NCBI GenBank assembly: GCA_947503785.1
Contig: CANNFB010000004.1
Span: 1-64,000 of the forward strand
DNA from: an uncultured Campylobacterales bacterium
GTDB lineage: Bacteria > Campylobacterota > Campylobacteria > Campylobacterales > Arcobacteraceae
DNA length: 64,000 bases
Reading direction: 5' to 3'
Numbering within the stretch: position 1 is the stretch's first letter; each line of letters starts with the position of its first letter. Both the position numbers and the translations under genes were made by a program. Shown here in pieces: positions 11,725 to 21,834 of the stretch. The notes under the pieces are model-generated. The model did no database searches and was not told where the DNA came from. It was given only the letters and a program-made list of their open reading frames with translations.

Positions 11725-12444
11725 ATGGAACAGTTCTTTAAAAAGTTTCAGCCCCATTCAGGAAAAATATTAGCAGGTATTCTTATTATCTTCTTTTCTT
11801 TTTTAGCTTATAATCTTTATCAAGCGCCAGTTGAAGGTTTTGAGAATAGTTTTGTTTATTTATTAAAAGAGTATGGTTATATTATACTTTTTGCTTGGGG
11901 TATGCTTGAAGGAGAAGCTGGTCTAATTATGGCTGGACTCTTATCTCATACTGGAGATATGAATCTATATATTGCTATTTTTGTTGCAGGCCTTGGTGGT
12001 TTTGCAGGAGATCAAGTATATTTTTATATAGGTAGATTTAATAAATCCTATGTTCATAGTAAGTTTAAAGGACAAAGAAGAAAGTTTGCTTTAGCTCATT
12101 TATTACTTCAAAAATATGGTTGGCCAATTATTTTTGCTCAAAGATACATGTATGGTATGAGAACTATTATTCCAATCTCAATTGGACTTACAAGATATGA
12201 CGCAAAAACGTTTGCATTTATAAATTTAATATCAGCATGGTGTTGGGCTGCTATTACAATTGTTCCTGTTTGGTATTTTGGAGAAGAGATTCTAAAAGTT
12301 TTACATTGGGCAAAAGATCATTGGTATTTTGCAATTCCAGTTGTTCTAGGGTTTGGTGGGAGTATTATTTACTATTTTAATAAAGCATCAAAAAAAGCAG
12401 AGAAGAAAAATTTTAAAATGAAAGAAGAAAAAAATGAAAATTAA
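11725..12444 (+). CDS. DedA family membrane protein
   Basis: A 239-residue DedA/SNARE-associated (PF09335-type) protein with about five membrane segments. The family region runs from EYGYIILFAWGMLEGEAGLIMAGLL through GDQVYFYIGR to RYMYGMRTIIPISIG; the acidic EGE and the later R-x3-P/G region resemble the DedA proton/lipid-transport core. DedA proteins are lipid transporters or scramblases, with undecaprenyl phosphate recycling shown for some members. Which lipid this one uses cannot be told. The C-terminal tail is lysine-rich and overlaps the aminopeptidase start by 11 bp. AAAAGG precedes the start. Confidence 0.85.
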   Translation: MEQFFKKFQPHSGKILAGILIIFFSFLAYNLYQAPVEGFENSFVYLLKEYGYIILFAWGMLEGEAGLIMAGLLSHTGDMNLYIAIFVAGLGGFAGDQVYFYIGRFNKSYVHSKFKGQRRKFALAHLLLQKYGWPIIFAQRYMYGMRTIIPISIGLTRYDAKTFAFINLISAWCWAAITIVPVWYFGEEILKVLHWAKDHWYFAIPVVLGFGGSIIYYFNKASKKAEKKNFKMKEEKNEN

Positions 12445-13882
12445 TTTAACAAATACAAAAATTAATAAAATAAAATCTGATATTGAAATTGTATTAGTAA
12501 ATAATATTGATAATATAGATGAAAAAGAATTATTAGAAAGCTTAGGTTTTGAAATTTTAGATGAGGCTATAGTCTTCTTACCCGAATCAGGAAAAATATT
12601 TGTAGCTTACGAAGAAGAAATATACGATTGTTTAGCAATTGCAATTGCAACTGCTATAAAGAAGTTTCAAACAACTACTTTTAAAAACGCAAAGTTAGAC
12701 TTAGGTTCTTTTGATTCTAAGATTTTAAAGTCTATAGTTGAAGGAACGCTTTTAGGTTCTTATACTTTTAACAACTACAAATCAAAACAAGAGAAAAAGA
12801 AAAAACAAGAATTAACAATTTCAATCCAAGAAGATTCACCAACATTAGATAATATTGAATTAAATACAATATTAAACGAATCTACAATTATTTCAAAAGC
12901 AGTAAATAAAGCAAGAGATATGGTAAATACTACTCCTGGTGATTTCTACCCAGATGTAATGGCAAAACTAGCTAAAAAACTAGCAAAAGATGCCAAAATT
13001 GAGTGTAAAATTAAAGGTGAAAAATTCCTAGAAAAAAATGATATGAATGCAATGCTAAGTGTTGGACGAGCCTCTATTCATGAATCAAAACTAATTCATT
13101 TATCTTATAAACCAAAAGATGCAAGAAAGAAAATAGTTCTAGTAGGAAAAGGTCTTACTTATGATTCTGGTGGACTTTCTTTAAAACCTGCAGATTATAT
13201 GGTAACAATGAAATCTGATAAGTCAGGTGGTTGTGCAGTATTAGCAACTATTTGGGCAATTGCAAAACTAGAACTTCCTTATGAAGTTCATGCGGTAATT
13301 GGTGCAGTTGAAAATATGATAGGTGGAGATGCTTATAAGCCTGATGATGTATTAAAAGCTAAAAATGGAAAAACAATAGAAGTACGAAATACAGATGCAG
13401 AAGGAAGACTAGTTCTTGCTGATTGTTTATGTTATGCGCAAGATGAGATTTCAGATATTGATTATATTTTTGATTATGCAACATTGACTGGTGCTTGTGT
13501 TGTTGGAGTTGGACAATATACAACAGGTATTATGGGTAATAATGAAATTTTAAAAAGAAATGCAGTATTAGCGTCTTTAAAGTCAGGTGAATACGCAACT
13601 GCTTTAGATTTCAATAGATATTTAAAGAAAACAATAAAATCAGATATTGCAGATATTTCAAATATTGCAAGCACTAGATACGGTGGAGCAATTACGGCAG
13701 GGTTATTTTTAGATAATTTTGTAGAAAAAGAAAATAAAGAAAAATGGATTCATTTTGATATTGCAGGACCTGCATTTGTAGAAAAAGCATGGGGATATAA
13801 TCCTTATGGCGCTAGTGGAGCAGGTGTTAGAATGACTATAGAATTTTTAAAGAATATTGAAAATAAAGTAAAAGATATTTAA
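12434..13882 (+). CDS. pepA: Leucyl aminopeptidase (M17)
   Basis: A 482-residue cytosolic M17 aminopeptidase. The catalytic C-terminal domain has VGKGLTYDSGGLSLKP (237-252), with Lys239 and Asp244 as metal ligands, the MKSDKSGG segment near 259-266, and the family signature NTDAEGRLVL (319-328) with Asp321, Glu323 and Arg325. The N-terminal domain (1-150) is less conserved and ends in a lysine-rich stretch. It removes N-terminal residues from peptides using two metal ions as a hexamer. It starts inside the end of the DedA gene, so translation is probably coupled. Confidence 0.95.
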   Translation: MKINLTNTKINKIKSDIEIVLVNNIDNIDEKELLESLGFEILDEAIVFLPESGKIFVAYEEEIYDCLAIAIATAIKKFQTTTFKNAKLDLGSFDSKILKSIVEGTLLGSYTFNNYKSKQEKKKKQELTISIQEDSPTLDNIELNTILNESTIISKAVNKARDMVNTTPGDFYPDVMAKLAKKLAKDAKIECKIKGEKFLEKNDMNAMLSVGRASIHESKLIHLSYKPKDARKKIVLVGKGLTYDSGGLSLKPADYMVTMKSDKSGGCAVLATIWAIAKLELPYEVHAVIGAVENMIGGDAYKPDDVLKAKNGKTIEVRNTDAEGRLVLADCLCYAQDEISDIDYIFDYATLTGACVVGVGQYTTGIMGNNEILKRNAVLASLKSGEYATALDFNRYLKKTIKSDIADISNIASTRYGGAITAGLFLDNFVEKENKEKWIHFDIAGPAFVEKAWGYNPYGASGAGVRMTIEFLKNIENKVKDI

Positions 13883-13889
13883 TTTATAT

Positions 13890-13962
13890 TACTTATGAAG
13901 GGTTTGAATAATGAAATTATTAAATAAAAAAATTCTATTTATAACAATACTCTTCATAAGTA
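13890..13962 (+). promoter_or_regulatory. Long-range RNA stem masking the sensor kinase ribosome site
   Basis: RNA bases UACUUAUGAAGGGU (13890-13903) pair with ACUCUUCAUAAGUA (13949-13962) over 14 positions, with one G-U. The left arm contains the Shine-Dalgarno AAGGG for the ATG at 13911; the right arm lies within codons 13-18 of the kinase. Closing it would block initiation. The pairing is read directly from the bases; the function is inference. Confidence 0.5.
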
Positions 13963-16751
13963 TATCGCTTAGTATTTATTTATTAGCATATAAATTAACT
14001 AGTGAAACTATACAAAAGTCCTTTAATAATCAAATAAAAATCAATCAAAACAATATAAGTTTTGTTATAAAACAGTTTAATAATACAAAATTTGATTTAT
14101 TAAATACTTTAGTGAAAAATGAGAATCTAAAAGAATTTATTTCATCAAAAAATGATATAGAATTAAAAAAACTTTTTTTATCTTTTGCAAGTTCTGATAA
14201 ACTAATAATGCAAATGCGTGTGTTAGATTTAAATGGTAATGAGACATTTAGGCTGGATAAGATAAAAGATAAATATATTTTTCAAAAGAAAGATTCTTTA
14301 CAAAACAAAGGGCATAGTGACTATTTTAAAAATTTTATAAAACTAAAAAATAATGAGTTAGGTATTTCTAAACTTGGTTTAAATTTTGAAAATAATAAAA
14401 TTGAAAAACCTTTTAAATCTACAATTAGAATGGCAATGCCAATTTTCTCAGATAAAAAAGAAAAAGCAATTTTAGTTATAAATTATAATATGAATAGTTT
14501 TATTAAAAGTCTTTTTTCTTCATCTACTTTTAATTTGTACTTAATAGATGAAAATGAATATTTTATTTATCATCCAGAAGATAAATTTTCATGGACAAAA
14601 TATAAAGATAAGAAAACTGTTATATCTGATTACTTTTCAAGAAATACACTTAAAAAATTAGTTTTCAAAGATATTGATTTATGGAGAAATAAATATAAAA
14701 TCATTTATGAAAATAAACAAACTGCTAGTTTAAACTTTTTTATAGAGAGAACTACAGATATTGGTGGACTTATATTTTTAGCAAGTTTATTTTTAGTAGT
14801 TCCATTTTTATATATGATTTTATTGTATATAAAGAAAATCAATTTATTAAACTCTTCCTTAATAGATTCAAAGGTAAAAATTGAGTCAATACTTAATCAT
14901 ACTTCAGATGCAATTATTTTGATTGATTTAAAAGGAATAATACAAGAAGTAAACTTATCTACAGAAAAGATATTTGGTTATAAAAAAGAAGAGTTAGTGT
15001 CTAAAAATATAAATATTTTAGTTCCTTCTCCACATCATAGTAAACATGATAATTATATTAAAAATCACGATAAAAACATGCATAGTAAAGTTATCAATGT
15101 TGATAGAGAATTATTTGCTTTACATAAAGATGGTTCAAGTTTATCGATTAGTTTAGTTGTAACAAAAGTTAATATTGCAAATTCTGAATATTTTATAGGA
15201 ACAATAAAGAATTTAAGTGATGAACTAAAAACAAAAAAGTTATTTGAAAATATTTTTGCTTCTTCTGCTATTGGGATAGGAATTGTATTAAAGGATGGAA
15301 GTTTATGGAGAGTAAATAAAAAGTTTGCAGATATAGTTGAGTATCCAATAGAAGAGTTAAAAAAATTAACTTTTCAAGATATTACGCATAAGGATGATTT
15401 AAGTAAAGATTTAGAGTTAGTTAATAAAGTATTAAATAAAGAGATAGATGAATACTCAATTGAAAAGAGATATATAACTAAATTAGGAAAAACTGTATGG
15501 GTAAATTTAAGAGTAAAGGGTGTTTTTAGTAATGAAAATAATGAAGTTTTTGATTACTTTATTGCTAGTATAGATGATATTACGGAGCAAATTCAGATTA
15601 AAAATAATTTAAAAGAAGCTGAGGAAATAGCTCATATTGGGCATTGGCTATGGGATATAAGAAAAGAAACTGTAGTCTTATCTGATAATATGCTAGCAAT
15701 ATTTGGAAAAACAAAAGAAACTTTTAAAAATAGCTATAGTTCTTTTATCAATATAATTCATAATGATGATAAAGAAAATGTTCTTAATACTTTAACTGAA
15801 TGTCTTAATATGAAAAAAGATTTAGAAATTGAGTATAGAATAGTAGTAAATAATGAAATAAAATTTATTTATGCTAAAGGTAGAATTTTATGTTTAGGTG
15901 AAGAATCAATAGAATTTTTTGGTACTTGTCAAGATATAACTAAATTAAAAATATTAGAAAAAGAGACGAAAAAAAGAGAACTTATATTAATGGAACAATC
16001 AAAATTAGCTTCTATGGGGGAAATGGTTGGTTCAATTGCACATCAATGGAGACAACCTTTAAACTCTATTGGTTTTATTTTACAAGATATGATTTCTGCT
16101 TATAAACATAATGAATTTGATGAAGATTATTTAAAAGAAGTAAAAAGAGAGATGATGGAACAGTTAAATTATATGTCAGAAACGATTGATGAATTTAGAA
16201 ACTATTTCAAAAATAATGAACCATATAAAGAGTTTAATATTGTTAATTCTTTATTAGATGTTAATAAGCTATATAGAGCTCAACTTGATAATTACTACTT
16301 GCATCTTCATATAAAAGCTAATAATAAAGATGTGAAAGAATTAACAAAAGAAGAGGTGTCTAATTTCAAAGTAATTAATCAAGAATCACAATTAAAACAA
16401 GTTTTAATAAATTGTATCTCAAATGCAAAAGATGCAATAATTCAGCTAGATACAAATATCAAAGAGCAAAAAAATATAATAGTTGAAATAAATGAAAATG
16501 AAAAAAATATTCAAATTTGTATAAATGATTTAGCAGGAGGAGTATCTTTGAAAAGTTTACCTCGAATATTTGAGCCATATTTTACTACTAAGAAAATGGG
16601 TACAGGATTAGGTTTATATATTTGTAAAACTATTTGTACTCAATCTTTAAAAGGAGATATTGAGTACAAGTACAATAATAAATTAATAAATGATATAGAG
16701 TATTTAGGTTCAAGTTTTATTATTACTGTACCTAAATTTATAGAAGATTAA
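13911..16751 (+). CDS. Membrane sensor histidine kinase with Cache-like and three PAS domains
   Basis: A 946-residue hybrid-free sensor kinase. Membrane helices at about 7-27 and 283-307 bracket a periplasmic region of about 255 residues that looks like a double Cache sensor. Three PAS domains follow (about 325-435, 445-558 with its PAC segment, 568-678). The dimerisation domain has the phospho-acceptor His711 in GSIAHQWRQPLNS, typical of the Campylobacterota kinases. The ATPase has N838 (INCISNAKDA), DLAGGV (873-878) and GTGLGLY (897-903). The ligand is unknown. No cognate DNA-binding regulator is adjacent; a REC-kinase is convergent just downstream. A 14-bp stem may mask its ribosome site. 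Confidence 0.9.
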   Translation: MKLLNKKILFITILFISISLSIYLLAYKLTSETIQKSFNNQIKINQNNISFVIKQFNNTKFDLLNTLVKNENLKEFISSKNDIELKKLFLSFASSDKLIMQMRVLDLNGNETFRLDKIKDKYIFQKKDSLQNKGHSDYFKNFIKLKNNELGISKLGLNFENNKIEKPFKSTIRMAMPIFSDKKEKAILVINYNMNSFIKSLFSSSTFNLYLIDENEYFIYHPEDKFSWTKYKDKKTVISDYFSRNTLKKLVFKDIDLWRNKYKIIYENKQTASLNFFIERTTDIGGLIFLASLFLVVPFLYMILLYIKKINLLNSSLIDSKVKIESILNHTSDAIILIDLKGIIQEVNLSTEKIFGYKKEELVSKNINILVPSPHHSKHDNYIKNHDKNMHSKVINVDRELFALHKDGSSLSISLVVTKVNIANSEYFIGTIKNLSDELKTKKLFENIFASSAIGIGIVLKDGSLWRVNKKFADIVEYPIEELKKLTFQDITHKDDLSKDLELVNKVLNKEIDEYSIEKRYITKLGKTVWVNLRVKGVFSNENNEVFDYFIASIDDITEQIQIKNNLKEAEEIAHIGHWLWDIRKETVVLSDNMLAIFGKTKETFKNSYSSFINIIHNDDKENVLNTLTECLNMKKDLEIEYRIVVNNEIKFIYAKGRILCLGEESIEFFGTCQDITKLKILEKETKKRELILMEQSKLASMGEMVGSIAHQWRQPLNSIGFILQDMISAYKHNEFDEDYLKEVKREMMEQLNYMSETIDEFRNYFKNNEPYKEFNIVNSLLDVNKLYRAQLDNYYLHLHIKANNKDVKELTKEEVSNFKVINQESQLKQVLINCISNAKDAIIQLDTNIKEQKNIIVEINENEKNIQICINDLAGGVSLKSLPRIFEPYFTTKKMGTGLGLYICKTICTQSLKGDIEYKYNNKLINDIEYLGSSFIITVPKFIED

Positions 16752-16763
16752 TAAGTCTTGAGT

Positions 16764-17888
16764 CTAATACTCATCTAAAGATTCTAAATAAATTTCAAAT
16801 TTAGCGCCATAATATGAAGTATCATTATGTATAAAGTTTTCATTGCTAACAGTTAATTTTCCTTGTAAATGATTTTCTACTATTTGTCGAGACATATGAA
16901 GCCCAATTCCTGTTCCTTTGTCTTTCTTAGTAGTAAAATATGGCTCAAAAACTTTATCTATAAATTCCTCAGGAATTCCCCCTGCGTTATCTTGTATAGT
17001 AATTATAAAGTTATTAGTATCTTTTCTTGTGCTAACTTTTATAATTCTTTCTTTATCTTGCTTTGCCAGTTCTTCTATTGCATTTTTTTCAATATTTATT
17101 AAAACTTGTATAAGTTCATTTTGATAATTACATAAATGAAAATCTTGAATATCTTTTATTTTTTCAATTTTATATGTTTTCATTTGAGAAAACATTAATT
17201 TCTCAATTTTATCTAAAGTATCTTTTATATAAAAGCAAGATTCTAAGTTATTTGGTTTAAGATAACTTTGAAAGTCATTAAGTGTTACATCCATATATTG
17301 AATTGAATTCATTATATTCTCAACCATACTATCCAGTGTATTATCTTCATCAATTATCTTTCCAAACTCTTTTTCAAGTTTAATATTTGAAGCACATATT
17401 GAAATTGTATTTAATGGTTGTCTCCATTGATGTGCAATATTTGCAAGCATTTCACCCATAGCTGCCATTTTAGATTGCATCATTAACATTCTCTCTTGTT
17501 TTATTGCTTCTTTTTCATTTAATAATTCTTGTTCAAATTGTTTAAGTTCATTTATTAACTCGTCTAAATCTATAGGTTTAACAATAAACTTTTTAACTTT
17601 TAATTTAATAGCTTCAATAAAATATTCTGGTTCACTAAATGCAGATGCAAGAATAATTGGAATGTCGAAATTATTCCTTTTTAATTCCTTATACATATCT
17701 ACACCGTTCATTTCAGGCATATTTATATCAGAAATAATTATGTCAGGCTTAATTTCATTAACTTTGCCAATTGCTTCTATAGGATTTTTAAAAGTATATA
17801 TATTGGAAATTTCTCTACTTAAAATTTTACCAATTTTTTTTAAGAGAAATTCATCATCTTCAACAATCATAACACGTAAATTAATCAT
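16764..17888 (-). CDS. Response regulator-histidine kinase fusion (REC-HisKA-HATPase)
   Basis: A 374-residue soluble protein. The receiver domain (1-115) has acidic pocket E10/D11/D12, phospho-acceptor Asp54 (IISDINMP) and Lys104 (FIVKPID). A helix (116-145) leads to the kinase dimerisation domain with His153 in ANIAHQWRQPLNT, then an ATPase domain with a DNAGGI box and GTGIGLHMS. A phosphorelay where the receiver tunes its own kinase is the usual reading. Its H-box nearly matches that of the adjacent 946-residue kinase, so the two may act on a shared pathway. It is tail to tail with that gene (12 bp apart) and divergent from the REC-PAS gene at 17982. Confidence 0.9.
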   Translation of the reverse strand: MINLRVMIVEDDEFLLKKIGKILSREISNIYTFKNPIEAIGKVNEIKPDIIISDINMPEMNGVDMYKELKRNNFDIPIILASAFSEPEYFIEAIKLKVKKFIVKPIDLDELINELKQFEQELLNEKEAIKQERMLMMQSKMAAMGEMLANIAHQWRQPLNTISICASNIKLEKEFGKIIDEDNTLDSMVENIMNSIQYMDVTLNDFQSYLKPNNLESCFYIKDTLDKIEKLMFSQMKTYKIEKIKDIQDFHLCNYQNELIQVLINIEKNAIEELAKQDKERIIKVSTRKDTNNFIITIQDNAGGIPEEFIDKVFEPYFTTKKDKGTGIGLHMSRQIVENHLQGKLTVSNENFIHNDTSYYGAKFEIYLESLDEY

Positions 17889-17981
17889 AGTATATAACCT
17901 CTTATTTTAATAATAACAATATTATCATGTTTTTATGTTTATTGAGATAAAATTGAAAAATTAGCAAGTAGGTATTGATTT

Positions 17982-19190
17982 ATGGAAGAAAGTTTTTTAA
18001 AAAAAATAAGCATTTTAATTGTTGATGATAGCAAAACAGATCTAGCTATAATAGATAAATCTTTAAGTCGATATTTTAAAAAAGTATACTCAGCTTCAGA
18101 TGGTGCAGAGGCATTTGAAATTTATAAAGAGAATAAAAATATTGATATTATAATATCAGATATTCAGATGCCTAAAATAAATGGTTTGGATTTATTGAAG
18201 CTTGTAAGACGTTCAGATTTAAGCATACCTTTTTTAATTGTATCTGCAACTTTCGATCAAGATATATTGATCCAATCTATAAATTTAAATGTAAGTTCGT
18301 TTCTTCCTAAACCTATCAATCTTCACTCCCTTATTGAAAAAATAGATATCCTCTGTGAAAGAAAATATTTTAATTATAAAGAAGAATTAAGAAAAGATGA
18401 AATAAATAATTATTTAGATTCAGTAAATACTGTTGCGTGTATTTATAAAATGAATCATGATGGCAATATTACATATATGAATAATCCAATGTTAAACATT
18501 ACAGGATATGAAGAAAAAGATATTGATATGCTATTCTTTGATCATATTATTCATCCTGATATTCCTAAAAAATATATTGAACAAAGTTGGGAAAATTTAA
18601 AAAATGGTGAAGTATGGAAAGGTAATACAAAGTTTATTACTAAGAATAAAGAGGCATTTTATTTAAACAGCACAATTTTTAAGTTAAGTAGTGAAGATGA
18701 CTCCTTTATAACTATTGCATTTTTAACAACAAAAGAAAATCTTGAAAAAAGAGATTTTCAAAAAAAAGTTATAAATAATATTAAAGAATATAATTTAAAA
18801 GAATCTAATTATAAAAAAGAGATTGAAAACTTAAATTCACAAAAAGCTAATTTGATTTTTTTATCAAATACAACGACAGGATTAGAAGAAAAAATAGCTA
18901 GATTACGTTCACAGGTTAATAAATATGAATTAGAGTTGAATCAAAAAGATAAAAAATATGAGCAAATGTTAAAACATAAACAAGAAGAAATTAGAAGTTT
19001 TGTAGAAAAAGCACAGAATGAAATGATAAAAGTATCTTTAATTCAAGAAGAAAAAGTTTTTTTAGAAAAAAATATTAAACTAATTGCAAAACAAAATATG
19101 ATGTTAAAAGAAGAAAGTGAAAGATCTAATAAACGATTGAAAGACTTAGAAGAATTATTGAAAATTAGCAGAAGTAAGAAAAGCATTTAA
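17982..19190 (+). CDS. REC-PAS-coiled-coil protein without output domain
   Basis: A 402-residue soluble protein. Receiver domain 1-125: acidic D15/D16, phospho-acceptor Asp60 (IISDIQMP), Thr/Ser around 88-90, Lys110 (FLPKPIN). PAS domain about 140-255, with GNITYMNNPMLNITGY and a HPDIP turn (191-195) resembling Aer-type PAS but missing the RHPDMP arginine. Residues 260-395 are a charged coiled coil. No kinase, cyclase, methyltransferase or DNA-binding domain follows, so it may signal through protein contacts. It is a paralogue of the protein on the opposite strand at 19218-20477, with the same domain order and matching motif positions (D60, K110). Confidence 0.85.
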   Translation: MEESFLKKISILIVDDSKTDLAIIDKSLSRYFKKVYSASDGAEAFEIYKENKNIDIIISDIQMPKINGLDLLKLVRRSDLSIPFLIVSATFDQDILIQSINLNVSSFLPKPINLHSLIEKIDILCERKYFNYKEELRKDEINNYLDSVNTVACIYKMNHDGNITYMNNPMLNITGYEEKDIDMLFFDHIIHPDIPKKYIEQSWENLKNGEVWKGNTKFITKNKEAFYLNSTIFKLSSEDDSFITIAFLTTKENLEKRDFQKKVINNIKEYNLKESNYKKEIENLNSQKANLIFLSNTTTGLEEKIARLRSQVNKYELELNQKDKKYEQMLKHKQEEIRSFVEKAQNEMIKVSLIQEEKVFLEKNIKLIAKQNMMLKEESERSNKRLKDLEELLKISRSKKSI

Positions 19191-19217
19191 AAGATTTATT
19201 TCTAAAGTTACTTGCTT

Positions 19218-20477
19218 CTATTTTAAATGTAAAACAAGATCTTCTAACTCTTTTATTCTTTTCAATTTTTTTATATTATCTTTTGATAAACTTATATTTT
19301 TACTCTCTAGTAAGCTTATATTTTGATTTAAAGTATGTTTACTTTGAACTAATAAGTCTTTATCATTTTTTAATTGATCATTTATTTTTATATATTTTTC
19401 TAATTCAGTTTTTTTATTTTTTCTAACTGTATCGACTCTTTTATCAACATTTTCCATTTGCAGTTCATAGTGATTTAATTGTCTTTCTTTTATACTGTTT
19501 TTTTCTTCTAGACTAGCATTCATACTTTGTAAATTATTTATGTATTTATTTAAATCAATAATTTGCTCACTCATCTCTTTATTTTGAAGGCTTAATTTTT
19601 TTATTTCAATTTCTAATTCATTTTTATTATTAACTAATTGATATTCTTTTTGTCTTGTCTCTTTAATATTAACAATTACTTTTTTCTTAAACTCTCTTTT
19701 TTCATTTTCTTCTTCAGTTGTCAAAAACCTTATGCCTATATAACCTGTGATTTCTTTTGATGTATTATCATAAAGTGGGAAAATTGTTGCATTTACATAA
19801 TAAGGAGTCCTATCTTTTGCCAAGTTTTTGACTTTTCCTTGCCATTTTTTACCTTTTTGAATATCTTTCCACAAATTTTCAAATGCAGATTTTGGCATAT
19901 CTGGATGTCTTACAATATTATGAGGTTTTCCAATTAATTCTTCTTGTTTATATTGAGCAACCTCGCAAAAAATATTATTTACATAAGTTATATTACCTTT
20001 TAAATCAGTCTTTGAAACTATTGCAACTTTGTTTAATGCATCAAGATACATTTTTATCTCTTTTTCTTTTAATATAAGTTTTTGCGCATTATCTTTTTCT
20101 TCACATAAGTTTGCAATCTTAGACAACATATCTTTTATATCAATTGGTTTAGGAATATATTCACTTACATTGTATTTTATTGATTCAAGTAAATATTCAG
20201 TTTCAGTATAAGCTGAACTTAAGATAAAAGGTATTTCTTTGTTCTCTTTTCGAATAGATTTTAATAAATCTATTCCATTTAAGTTTGGCATATTAATATC
20301 ACTAACAATTACATCAATATTATTTTTATTTTTAAAATAGAGTTCAAGACCTTTCTCTCCATCTTCTGCAATTAAAACTTTTTTAAATATTAAATTAAGT
20401 AAGGATTTGACTTTTTCTCTTAAGTCTTTATTATCTTCTACATATAAAATAATTGATTCTTTTAATATCTCTTTCAT
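19218..20477 (-). CDS. REC-Aer-type PAS-coiled-coil protein
   Basis: A 419-residue paralogue of the preceding protein. The receiver domain (1-125) has D15 of ED, Asp60 (VIVSDINMP) and Lys110 (YIPKPID). The PAS domain (about 145-255) carries a full aerotaxis-type signature: LIGKPHNIVRHPDMP (181-195), then LWKDIQKGKKWQGKVKN. In Aer, this PAS type binds FAD and reports redox or oxygen. The rest (260-415) is a long coiled coil rich in Lys, Glu, Asn. With no catalytic output, it could be an adaptor or scaffold that links redox sensing and phosphorylation to a partner. Cofactor binding is inferred from the motif only. Confidence 0.87.
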   Translation of the reverse strand: MKEILKESIILYVEDNKDLREKVKSLLNLIFKKVLIAEDGEKGLELYFKNKNNIDVIVSDINMPNLNGIDLLKSIRKENKEIPFILSSAYTETEYLLESIKYNVSEYIPKPIDIKDMLSKIANLCEEKDNAQKLILKEKEIKMYLDALNKVAIVSKTDLKGNITYVNNIFCEVAQYKQEELIGKPHNIVRHPDMPKSAFENLWKDIQKGKKWQGKVKNLAKDRTPYYVNATIFPLYDNTSKEITGYIGIRFLTTEEENEKREFKKKVIVNIKETRQKEYQLVNNKNELEIEIKKLSLQNKEMSEQIIDLNKYINNLQSMNASLEEKNSIKERQLNHYELQMENVDKRVDTVRKNKKTELEKYIKINDQLKNDKDLLVQSKHTLNQNISLLESKNISLSKDNIKKLKRIKELEDLVLHLK

Positions 20478-20730
20478 AAATCATTTTCCTATTTACTTAA
20501 TTTATTTCTTAATATTAGAAAGTATAAATATTCCCTAATAATATTATTTATTTAGTATTATACTTTATAATAGATTCTATTGTAATTATTTACTTAAAAT
20601 AATAAAAATATTACTTTTTCTATATTCTAAAATGCAACTTTGCATCTATACTTGTTTTATCTGTATTTTTGTATTATTCGTTTATAATACAAATAAAAAA
20701 TTACTAACAATAATATATAAAAGGAAAGAA
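20478..20730. promoter_or_regulatory. Divergent promoter region upstream of ychF
   Basis: 253 bp without a gene between two divergent starts. A TATAAT at 20683-20688 would start ychF transcription near 20695. A 14-bp palindrome ATGCAACTTTGCAT lies at 20632-20645. The open frame that begins at 20632 and runs into ychF is not a real extension, because it would place codons across this -10 box. Confidence 0.45.
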
Positions 20731-21834
20731 ATGGGATTAGGTGTAGGAATTGTAGGATTACCAAATATAGGGAAGTCAACAACGTTTAATGCGTTAACAA
20801 AAGCACAAAATGCTGAGGCACAAAATTATCCATTTTGTACAATTGAACCAAATAAAGCAGTTGTTCCAGTACCTGATAAAAGATTAGATGCATTAGCAAA
20901 GATTGTAAATCCAGAAAAAATTCAACACTCAACAATTGATTTTGTTGATATTGCAGGTTTAGTTAAGGGTGCATCAAAAGGTGAGGGTTTAGGTAATCAA
21001 TTCTTATCTAATATTAGAGAAGTTGAAGTTATTTTACATATGGTAAGATGTTTTGAAGATGAAAATATTGTTCATGTTGAAGGTGGAATTGATCCTTTAC
21101 GAGATATTGAAATAATTGAAACAGAATTAATATATGCAGATATTACACAAGTTGAAAAAAAGTGTGATAAGCTTAAAAAAGAATCAAAGTTTGATAAATT
21201 AGCAGCTGCTAAATTACCTATTGCTCAAGCTCTATTATCTCACTTAGAAGATTTAAATCCAGCAAGTTCATTTGAAGATAGAGATGATGAAAACTTTATT
21301 GAATTAGATAGAGAATTAAGATTATTATCAAATAAAAGTATTATTTATGGAACGAATGTTGATGAAGATTCATTAGCAGATGGTGGAAATAAATACGTAG
21401 ATTTAGTAAAAGAACATGCAAATGCAGTAAATGCAGATGTAATTGTTTTATGCGCAAAAATTGAAGAAGAATTAGTAGGTCTTGAAGATGATGAAGCACA
21501 AGAGTTTTTAACTGATTTAGGTGTTGAAGAATCAGGATTGGAACAAATTATTCATCATGCTTTTGATAAACTAGGTCTTCAGTCATACTTCACAGCTGGA
21601 AAAATGGAAGTTAGAGCTTGGACTATTAAAAAAGAAACTAAAGCACCACAAGCAGCAGCTGTAATTCATAATGACTTTGAAAAAGGTTTTATTAAAGCTG
21701 AAGTTATTGCATATGAAGATTTTGTTTCACTAGGTGGTGAAGCTAAAGCAAAAGAAGCTGGTAAATTAAGATTAGAAGGTAAAGATTATGTTGTTAATGA
21801 TGGTGATGTTATGCACTTTAGATTTAATACATAA
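20731..21834 (+). CDS. ychF: Redox-regulated ATPase/GTPase YchF (OLA1 family)
   Basis: A 367-residue Obg-related P-loop protein. The start ATG at 20731 is chosen because AAAGGAAAG lies just before it and the protein then begins MGLGVGIVGLPNIGKST, the normal YchF N-terminus with the Walker A loop at 8-15. The DIAGLVKGASKGEG switch region follows, a coiled-coil insert lies at about 130-200, and the C-terminal TGS domain ends with VNDGDVMHFRFN. YchF binds ribosomes and prefers ATP over GTP (NKxD is replaced in the family). Length matches the usual 363-368 residues. Confidence 0.95.
   Translation: MGLGVGIVGLPNIGKSTTFNALTKAQNAEAQNYPFCTIEPNKAVVPVPDKRLDALAKIVNPEKIQHSTIDFVDIAGLVKGASKGEGLGNQFLSNIREVEVILHMVRCFEDENIVHVEGGIDPLRDIEIIETELIYADITQVEKKCDKLKKESKFDKLAAAKLPIAQALLSHLEDLNPASSFEDRDDENFIELDRELRLLSNKSIIYGTNVDEDSLADGGNKYVDLVKEHANAVNADVIVLCAKIEEELVGLEDDEAQEFLTDLGVEESGLEQIIHHAFDKLGLQSYFTAGKMEVRAWTIKKETKAPQAAAVIHNDFEKGFIKAEVIAYEDFVSLGGEAKAKEAGKLRLEGKDYVVNDGDVMHFRFNT

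What the first reader, a model, noticed from the sequence alone, without database searches (positions are those of the whole stretch)
13890..13962. 14-bp stem that hides the sensor kinase ribosome site
UACUUAUGAAGGGU (with the Shine-Dalgarno) is complementary to ACUCUUCAUAAGUA inside codons 13-18 of the same gene, with one wobble. A coding-region anti-Shine-Dalgarno of this length is unlikely by chance in 75 bases. It could repress kinase translation until unfolded by ribosome, small RNA or temperature.
Basis: seen in the sequence. Interest (0 to 1): 0.55.

Follow-up and report, generated by a model that had tools for sequence, protein, structure and literature searches.

The report
Kinase ribosome-site hairpin, probably incidental

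Summary
Confirmed in the sequence: 13890-13903 (TACTTATGAAGGGT, holding the AAGG Shine-Dalgarno) pairs with 13949-13962 (ACTCTTCATAAGTA, codons 13-18 of a 946-aa PAS/HATPase kinase): 14 bp, one G-U, 45-nt loop. It is the strongest SD-to-coding duplex among 403 sampled genes of this genome, and predicted SD accessibility is near zero from 4 to 42 C, which argues against a thermometer. Random leader-by-CDS pairings from the same genes reach 14 bp in 0.105% of cases and the same energy in 0.03%: about 0.02-0.06 such stems per window, about 0.7-2.5 per genome. Only three close orthologues were found, the window's included. Both relatives keep 13 of 14 pairs, but 348 of 929 segments of the same gene would do as well. 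The one compensatory change is not significant (174 of 500 shuffles). Upstream-arm conservation matches that of neighbouring genes. None of 26 more distant homologues has a stem of 12 bp or more. Verdict: a real, strong predicted stem that could lower translation, without evidence of selection or switching. Closest known kind: coding-region anti-SD (E. coli gnd, H. pylori aapA3).

The parts
13890..13903 (+). 5' arm of the stem, holding the Shine-Dalgarno AAGG (13898-13901)
   Evidence: 1 change in each of two orthologues
13949..13962 (+). 3' arm (anti-Shine-Dalgarno) inside codons 13-18 of the kinase
   Evidence: 1 change in L002, 4 in L003
13904..13948 (+). 45-nt loop with the start codon at 13911-13913
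   Evidence: weak internal pairing in the MFE fold
13911..16751 (+). sensor histidine kinase, 946 aa: HK sensor domain, PAS domains, HATPase_c
12434..13882 (+). upstream M17 leucyl aminopeptidase (pepA-like), stop 28 nt before the kinase start
13885..13890 (+). possible -10 box (TATATT; TATAAT and TATACT in the orthologues); if used, transcription would start inside the 5' arm
   Evidence: sequence comparison and the C. jejuni rule in PMC3847290; the consensus scan does not list it; uncertain

Best explanation
The stem is a real thermodynamic feature of the kinase mRNA but most likely arose by chance in an AT-rich gene whose N-terminal membrane helix is encoded by U-rich codons and is therefore prone to pair with a purine-rich SD. 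On any transcript that starts at or before about 13896 it would close over the SD once the polymerase has passed about 13960. Initiation would then depend on a ribosome loading before that point, or on ribosomes already covering the coding arm. The expected effect is a constitutively modest kinase output, not a switch. Shown here: the pairing, its energy, its rank among genes, its background-level conservation. Inferred: reduced translation and the absence of a dedicated regulatory role.
For: Chance rate of 14 bp or of -19 kcal/mol in random leader x CDS pairings gives about 0.7-2.5 per genome (scaled). Cognate stems of 10 bp or more are no commoner than random ones (5.7% against 6.3%). Both orthologues keep 13/14 pairs, but 348 of 929 phase-matched segments of the gene would do so too. 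Covariation lies within shuffles (174 of 500). Conservation at -21..-14 is 8/8 here and also upstream of apt, trpB and the DedA-like gene. No stem of 12 bp or more in 26 homologues with an assigned start. SD closed at every temperature tried and with every 5' end tried from 13700 to 13896. SD 0.44-0.59 open until the RNA reaches about 13955.
Against: Rank 1 of 403 genes in both energy and length. Synonymous recodings reach the observed energy in only 1, 48 and 239 of 20000 for window, L002 and L003. In L003, 3 of 4 changes in the 3' arm keep pairing against a gene-wide rate of 0.23, and only 2.4% of 84 segments that diverged as much keep 13 pairs. One G-C to A-U double change.
Confidence: 0.6

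Rival explanations
1. A selected static brake: the stem keeps kinase synthesis low because few copies of a sensor kinase are needed. Only ribosomes that load before the 3' arm is made, or (in this species) ribosomes ending pepA translation 7 nt before the 5' arm, can open it.
For: Near-zero predicted SD accessibility; recoding test; 13 of 14 pairs kept in two relatives; 3 of 4 changes pair-keeping in L003.
Against: Retention at background rate; pair 13 lost in both relatives; the pepA stop is 23 nt, not 7, before the arm in the relatives (sequences); with a transcript starting at -14 the L003 SD is predicted 0.80-0.96 open.
Confidence: 0.28
2. A regulated switch: temperature, a small RNA or another factor opens the stem under some condition.
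For: Anatomy only: SD in the stem, start codon in the loop.
Against: No opening from 4 to 42 C; no Rfam match; no alternative fold found that frees the SD in the longer transcripts tried.
Confidence: 0.07
3. The inverted repeat acts at the DNA level, as an operator or as part of a promoter, and the RNA pairing is a by-product.
For: TATANT before the arm in all three orthologues; the upstream arm is well conserved.
Against: ACTTATGAAG occurs 40 times in the genome but as a close inverted pair only here; near matches in the window are at chance level (12 against 9.6 expected); the 3' arm diverges in L003 at 4 of 14 sites; the consensus scan lists no promoter with that -10 box.
Confidence: 0.05

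Closest known systems
E. coli gnd coding-region anti-SD (internal complementary sequence)
   Same: A sequence inside the coding region pairs with the gene's own SD; moved to codon 13, a UCCU anti-SD repressed more strongly (as cited in a passage of PMC6733600). Here too the arm is at codons 13-18.
   Different: In gnd the effect was shown by mutation and the natural arm is near codon 66 (same passage); growth-rate control of gnd and the name 'internal complementary sequence' are recalled, not seen in a paper read here. Here there is no functional test and no known input.
H. pylori aapA3 aSD2 hairpin (type I toxin-antitoxin mRNA)
   Same: SD sequestered by an anti-SD inside the ORF, relevant during transcription (passages of PMC6733600).
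   Different: There the wild-type hairpin is transient and part of a folding pathway with three anti-SDs and an antisense RNA; here it is one long stable stem in a kinase mRNA.
E. coli rpoH RNA thermometer
   Same: 5' UTR and coding region together hide the SD (passage of PMC4166951).
   Different: No predicted opening from 4 to 42 C here; a single long-range stem.

Membership tests
coding-region anti-SD (gnd / aapA3 type) | sequence in the CDS complementary to the gene's own SD | tested here: met
   14 bp; rank 1 of 403
coding-region anti-SD (gnd / aapA3 type) | SD predicted to be occluded in the mRNA | tested here: met
coding-region anti-SD (gnd / aapA3 type) | pairing conserved beyond the background of the gene | tested here: inconclusive
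   only 3 orthologues; 348 of 929 segments do as well, 174 of 500 shuffles, a weak hint in L003
coding-region anti-SD (gnd / aapA3 type) | arm mutations change translation and compensatory ones restore it | not testable with these tools
   needs reporter fusions
RNA thermometer | SD opens within the physiological temperature range | tested here: not met
   predicted SD unpaired 0.00 at 4-42 C in the window sequence; prediction only
RNA family in Rfam (thermometer, riboswitch or other) | match to a curated covariance model | tested here: not met
   only a tRNA in the window at gathering score; none at E up to 5 in 13750-14100
translational coupling to the upstream gene | upstream stop close enough for a terminating ribosome to reach the stem, in all orthologues | tested here: not met
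   stop 7 nt before the 5' arm in the window but 23 nt before it in the two orthologues (sequences)

The most novel reading that the evidence does not exclude
A selected coding-region anti-SD that keeps a PAS sensor kinase almost untranslated unless a ribosome loads within the roughly 60 nt before the 3' arm is transcribed, so that kinase output follows the rate of co-transcriptional initiation. It would be an uncommon control point for a two-component system.
Probability: 0.2. Interest if true: 0.4.

Novelty: new member of a known kind. Interest (0 to 1): 0.2.

Why it matters
If functional, it would be a two-component kinase limited at translation by a sequence inside its own coding region, a mechanism that I know from only a few genes. 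If not, it illustrates that an AT-rich genome of about 2400 genes yields one or two such stems by chance, so length alone is not evidence of function.

Tried and rejected
RNA thermometer: rejected on predicted accessibility from 4 to 42 C. Rfam element: none. Dispersed operator: ACTTATGAAG occurs 40 times in the genome but forms a close inverted pair only here. Conservation of the upstream arm as evidence: rejected, since neighbours are as conserved. Distant homologues: a first attempt mishandled reverse-strand loci and is superseded, where 26 of 27 loci got a start (L033 did not); the rule for starts is crude, and two of the starts are TTG codons. L005 and L006 (cyanobacterium, Noviherbaspirillum; partial matches) and L004 (same contig as L012) were not used. 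The 403 genes come from a simple mechanical gene caller with starts chosen by SD score, so some starts will be wrong.

Small reading frame 13895-13927 overlapping the kinase start: present in all three, but without an SD of its own, and explained by the arm and the SD; not pursued. Literature: search listings; passages read in PMC3847290, PMC6733600 and PMC4166951. I saw no paper on this stem in those listings, which cover only an open-access library and were not aimed at this gene by name.

Full report
Observation. Window 13890-13903 (TACTTATGAAGGGT) and 13949-13962 (ACTCTTCATAAGTA) form 14 contiguous pairs with one G-U and a loop of 45 nt. The kinase ORF starts at 13911 (946 aa), and an in-frame TGA at 13905-13907 excludes an earlier start (sequence). 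Pfam gives a sensor domain, PAS domains and HATPase_c for the kinase, and an M17 aminopeptidase for the gene upstream. The MFE structure of 13860-13990 holds the stem at -21.5 kcal/mol; 1 of 200 shuffles is as stable.

How unusual. In 464 kb of this genome (window plus 20 stretches) a simple gene caller gave 403 genes. The target ranks first for leader-to-CDS duplex energy (-19.0 kcal/mol) and for contiguous length; the next longest is one gene at 12. When leaders and coding starts of these 403 genes are paired at random, 63 of 59860 reach 14 bp and 12 of 39899 reach -19 kcal/mol. Cognate pairs of 10 bp or more are not enriched (5.7% against 6.3%). Among synonymous recodings at this genome's codon usage, 1 (window), 48 (L002) and 239 (L003) of 20000 are as strong. 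The three are not independent, and the window's figure leans on a CTC codon (0.5% of Leu codons) absent from the others.

Consequence if it forms. Predicted SD accessibility is 0.0009 at 37 C; one of the other 298 SD-bearing genes is as low or lower, and 11 of 299 are under 0.05. It stays at 0.00 from 4 to 42 C, which speaks against a thermometer. It stays closed with 5' ends tried from 13700 to 13896 and is 0.089 with a 5' end at 13898. It is open at 0.44-0.59 while the 3' end has not passed 13955, and closed from 13960 on. A ribosome therefore has some 60 nt of transcription in which to load. That the stem lowers translation is an inference.

Orthologues. Close orthologues were found in two other genomes: L002 (Poseidonibacter lekithochrous A1R12; same contig as L008) and L003 (Arcobacter sp. 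MAG CPC16; same contig as L009), out of 104 family genomes searched, the window's own included. Both keep 13 of 14 pairs; pair 13 is lost in both (A-A, G-G). L003 has a G-C to A-U double change at pair 11, a G-C to G-U and a U-A to U-G. Three tests say this is background: 348 of 929 phase-matched 14-nt segments of the gene would retain 13 pairs in both relatives; shuffles reach the covariation score in 174 of 500; invariance at -21..-14 is 8/8 here and also for apt, trpB and the DedA-like gene, 7/8 and 3/8 for two others. One result leans the other way: in L003 3 of 4 substitutions in the 3' arm keep pairing against 95 of 413 gene-wide, and 2.4% of 84 equally diverged segments keep 13 pairs; in L002 it is 0 of 1. 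Of 27 more distant homologous loci, 26 were given a start, and none has 12 bp or more or -12 kcal/mol or better.

Transcription. All three have TATANT directly before the 5' arm. By the C. jejuni rule (gnTAnaAT 4-8 nt before the start; passages of PMC3847290) this could start transcription inside the arm, near 13894-13898. The E. coli-type consensus scan does not list a promoter with that -10 box. In the window the stem would survive such a start, in L003 it would not with a start at -14. The pepA stop lies 28 nt before the kinase start in the window but 44 nt in the two orthologues, because of a one-base difference near the end of pepA (sequences), so coupling to pepA would not be shared.

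Comparison. The closest known kind is the anti-SD inside a coding region: E. coli gnd and H. pylori aapA3 aSD2 (passages of PMC6733600), and more loosely the rpoH thermometer (passage of PMC4166951). The anatomy fits the first two; the functional features are untested. It is filed as a candidate member of that kind, more likely than not incidental.

Noticed in passing
window 13911-20477: A cluster of four signalling genes (PAS kinase, response regulator fused to HATPase, two response-regulator/PAS-like proteins) lies between pepA and a YchF-like GTPase gene (20632-21834). In G094 the same interval holds a different hybrid kinase, and in G095 and G099 the gene after pepA looks like a periplasmic binding protein (names other than those are from reading the sequence).
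   Followed up: partly
L074:211-330 (G094): Before the hybrid kinase that follows pepA in G094 there is an ATG with an SD-like AGGA that runs into a stop after five codons, while the long frame starts about 96 nt later: the N-terminal part looks broken or misread.
   Followed up: no
window 13895-13927: A ten-codon reading frame (MKGLNNEIIK) overlaps the kinase start in another frame and is present in both orthologues, without an SD of its own.
   Followed up: no
window 13850-13882: The pepA-like gene of the window is extended by a few codons relative to both orthologues through a one-base difference near its end, which shortens the gap to the kinase from 44 to 28 nt.
   Followed up: partly
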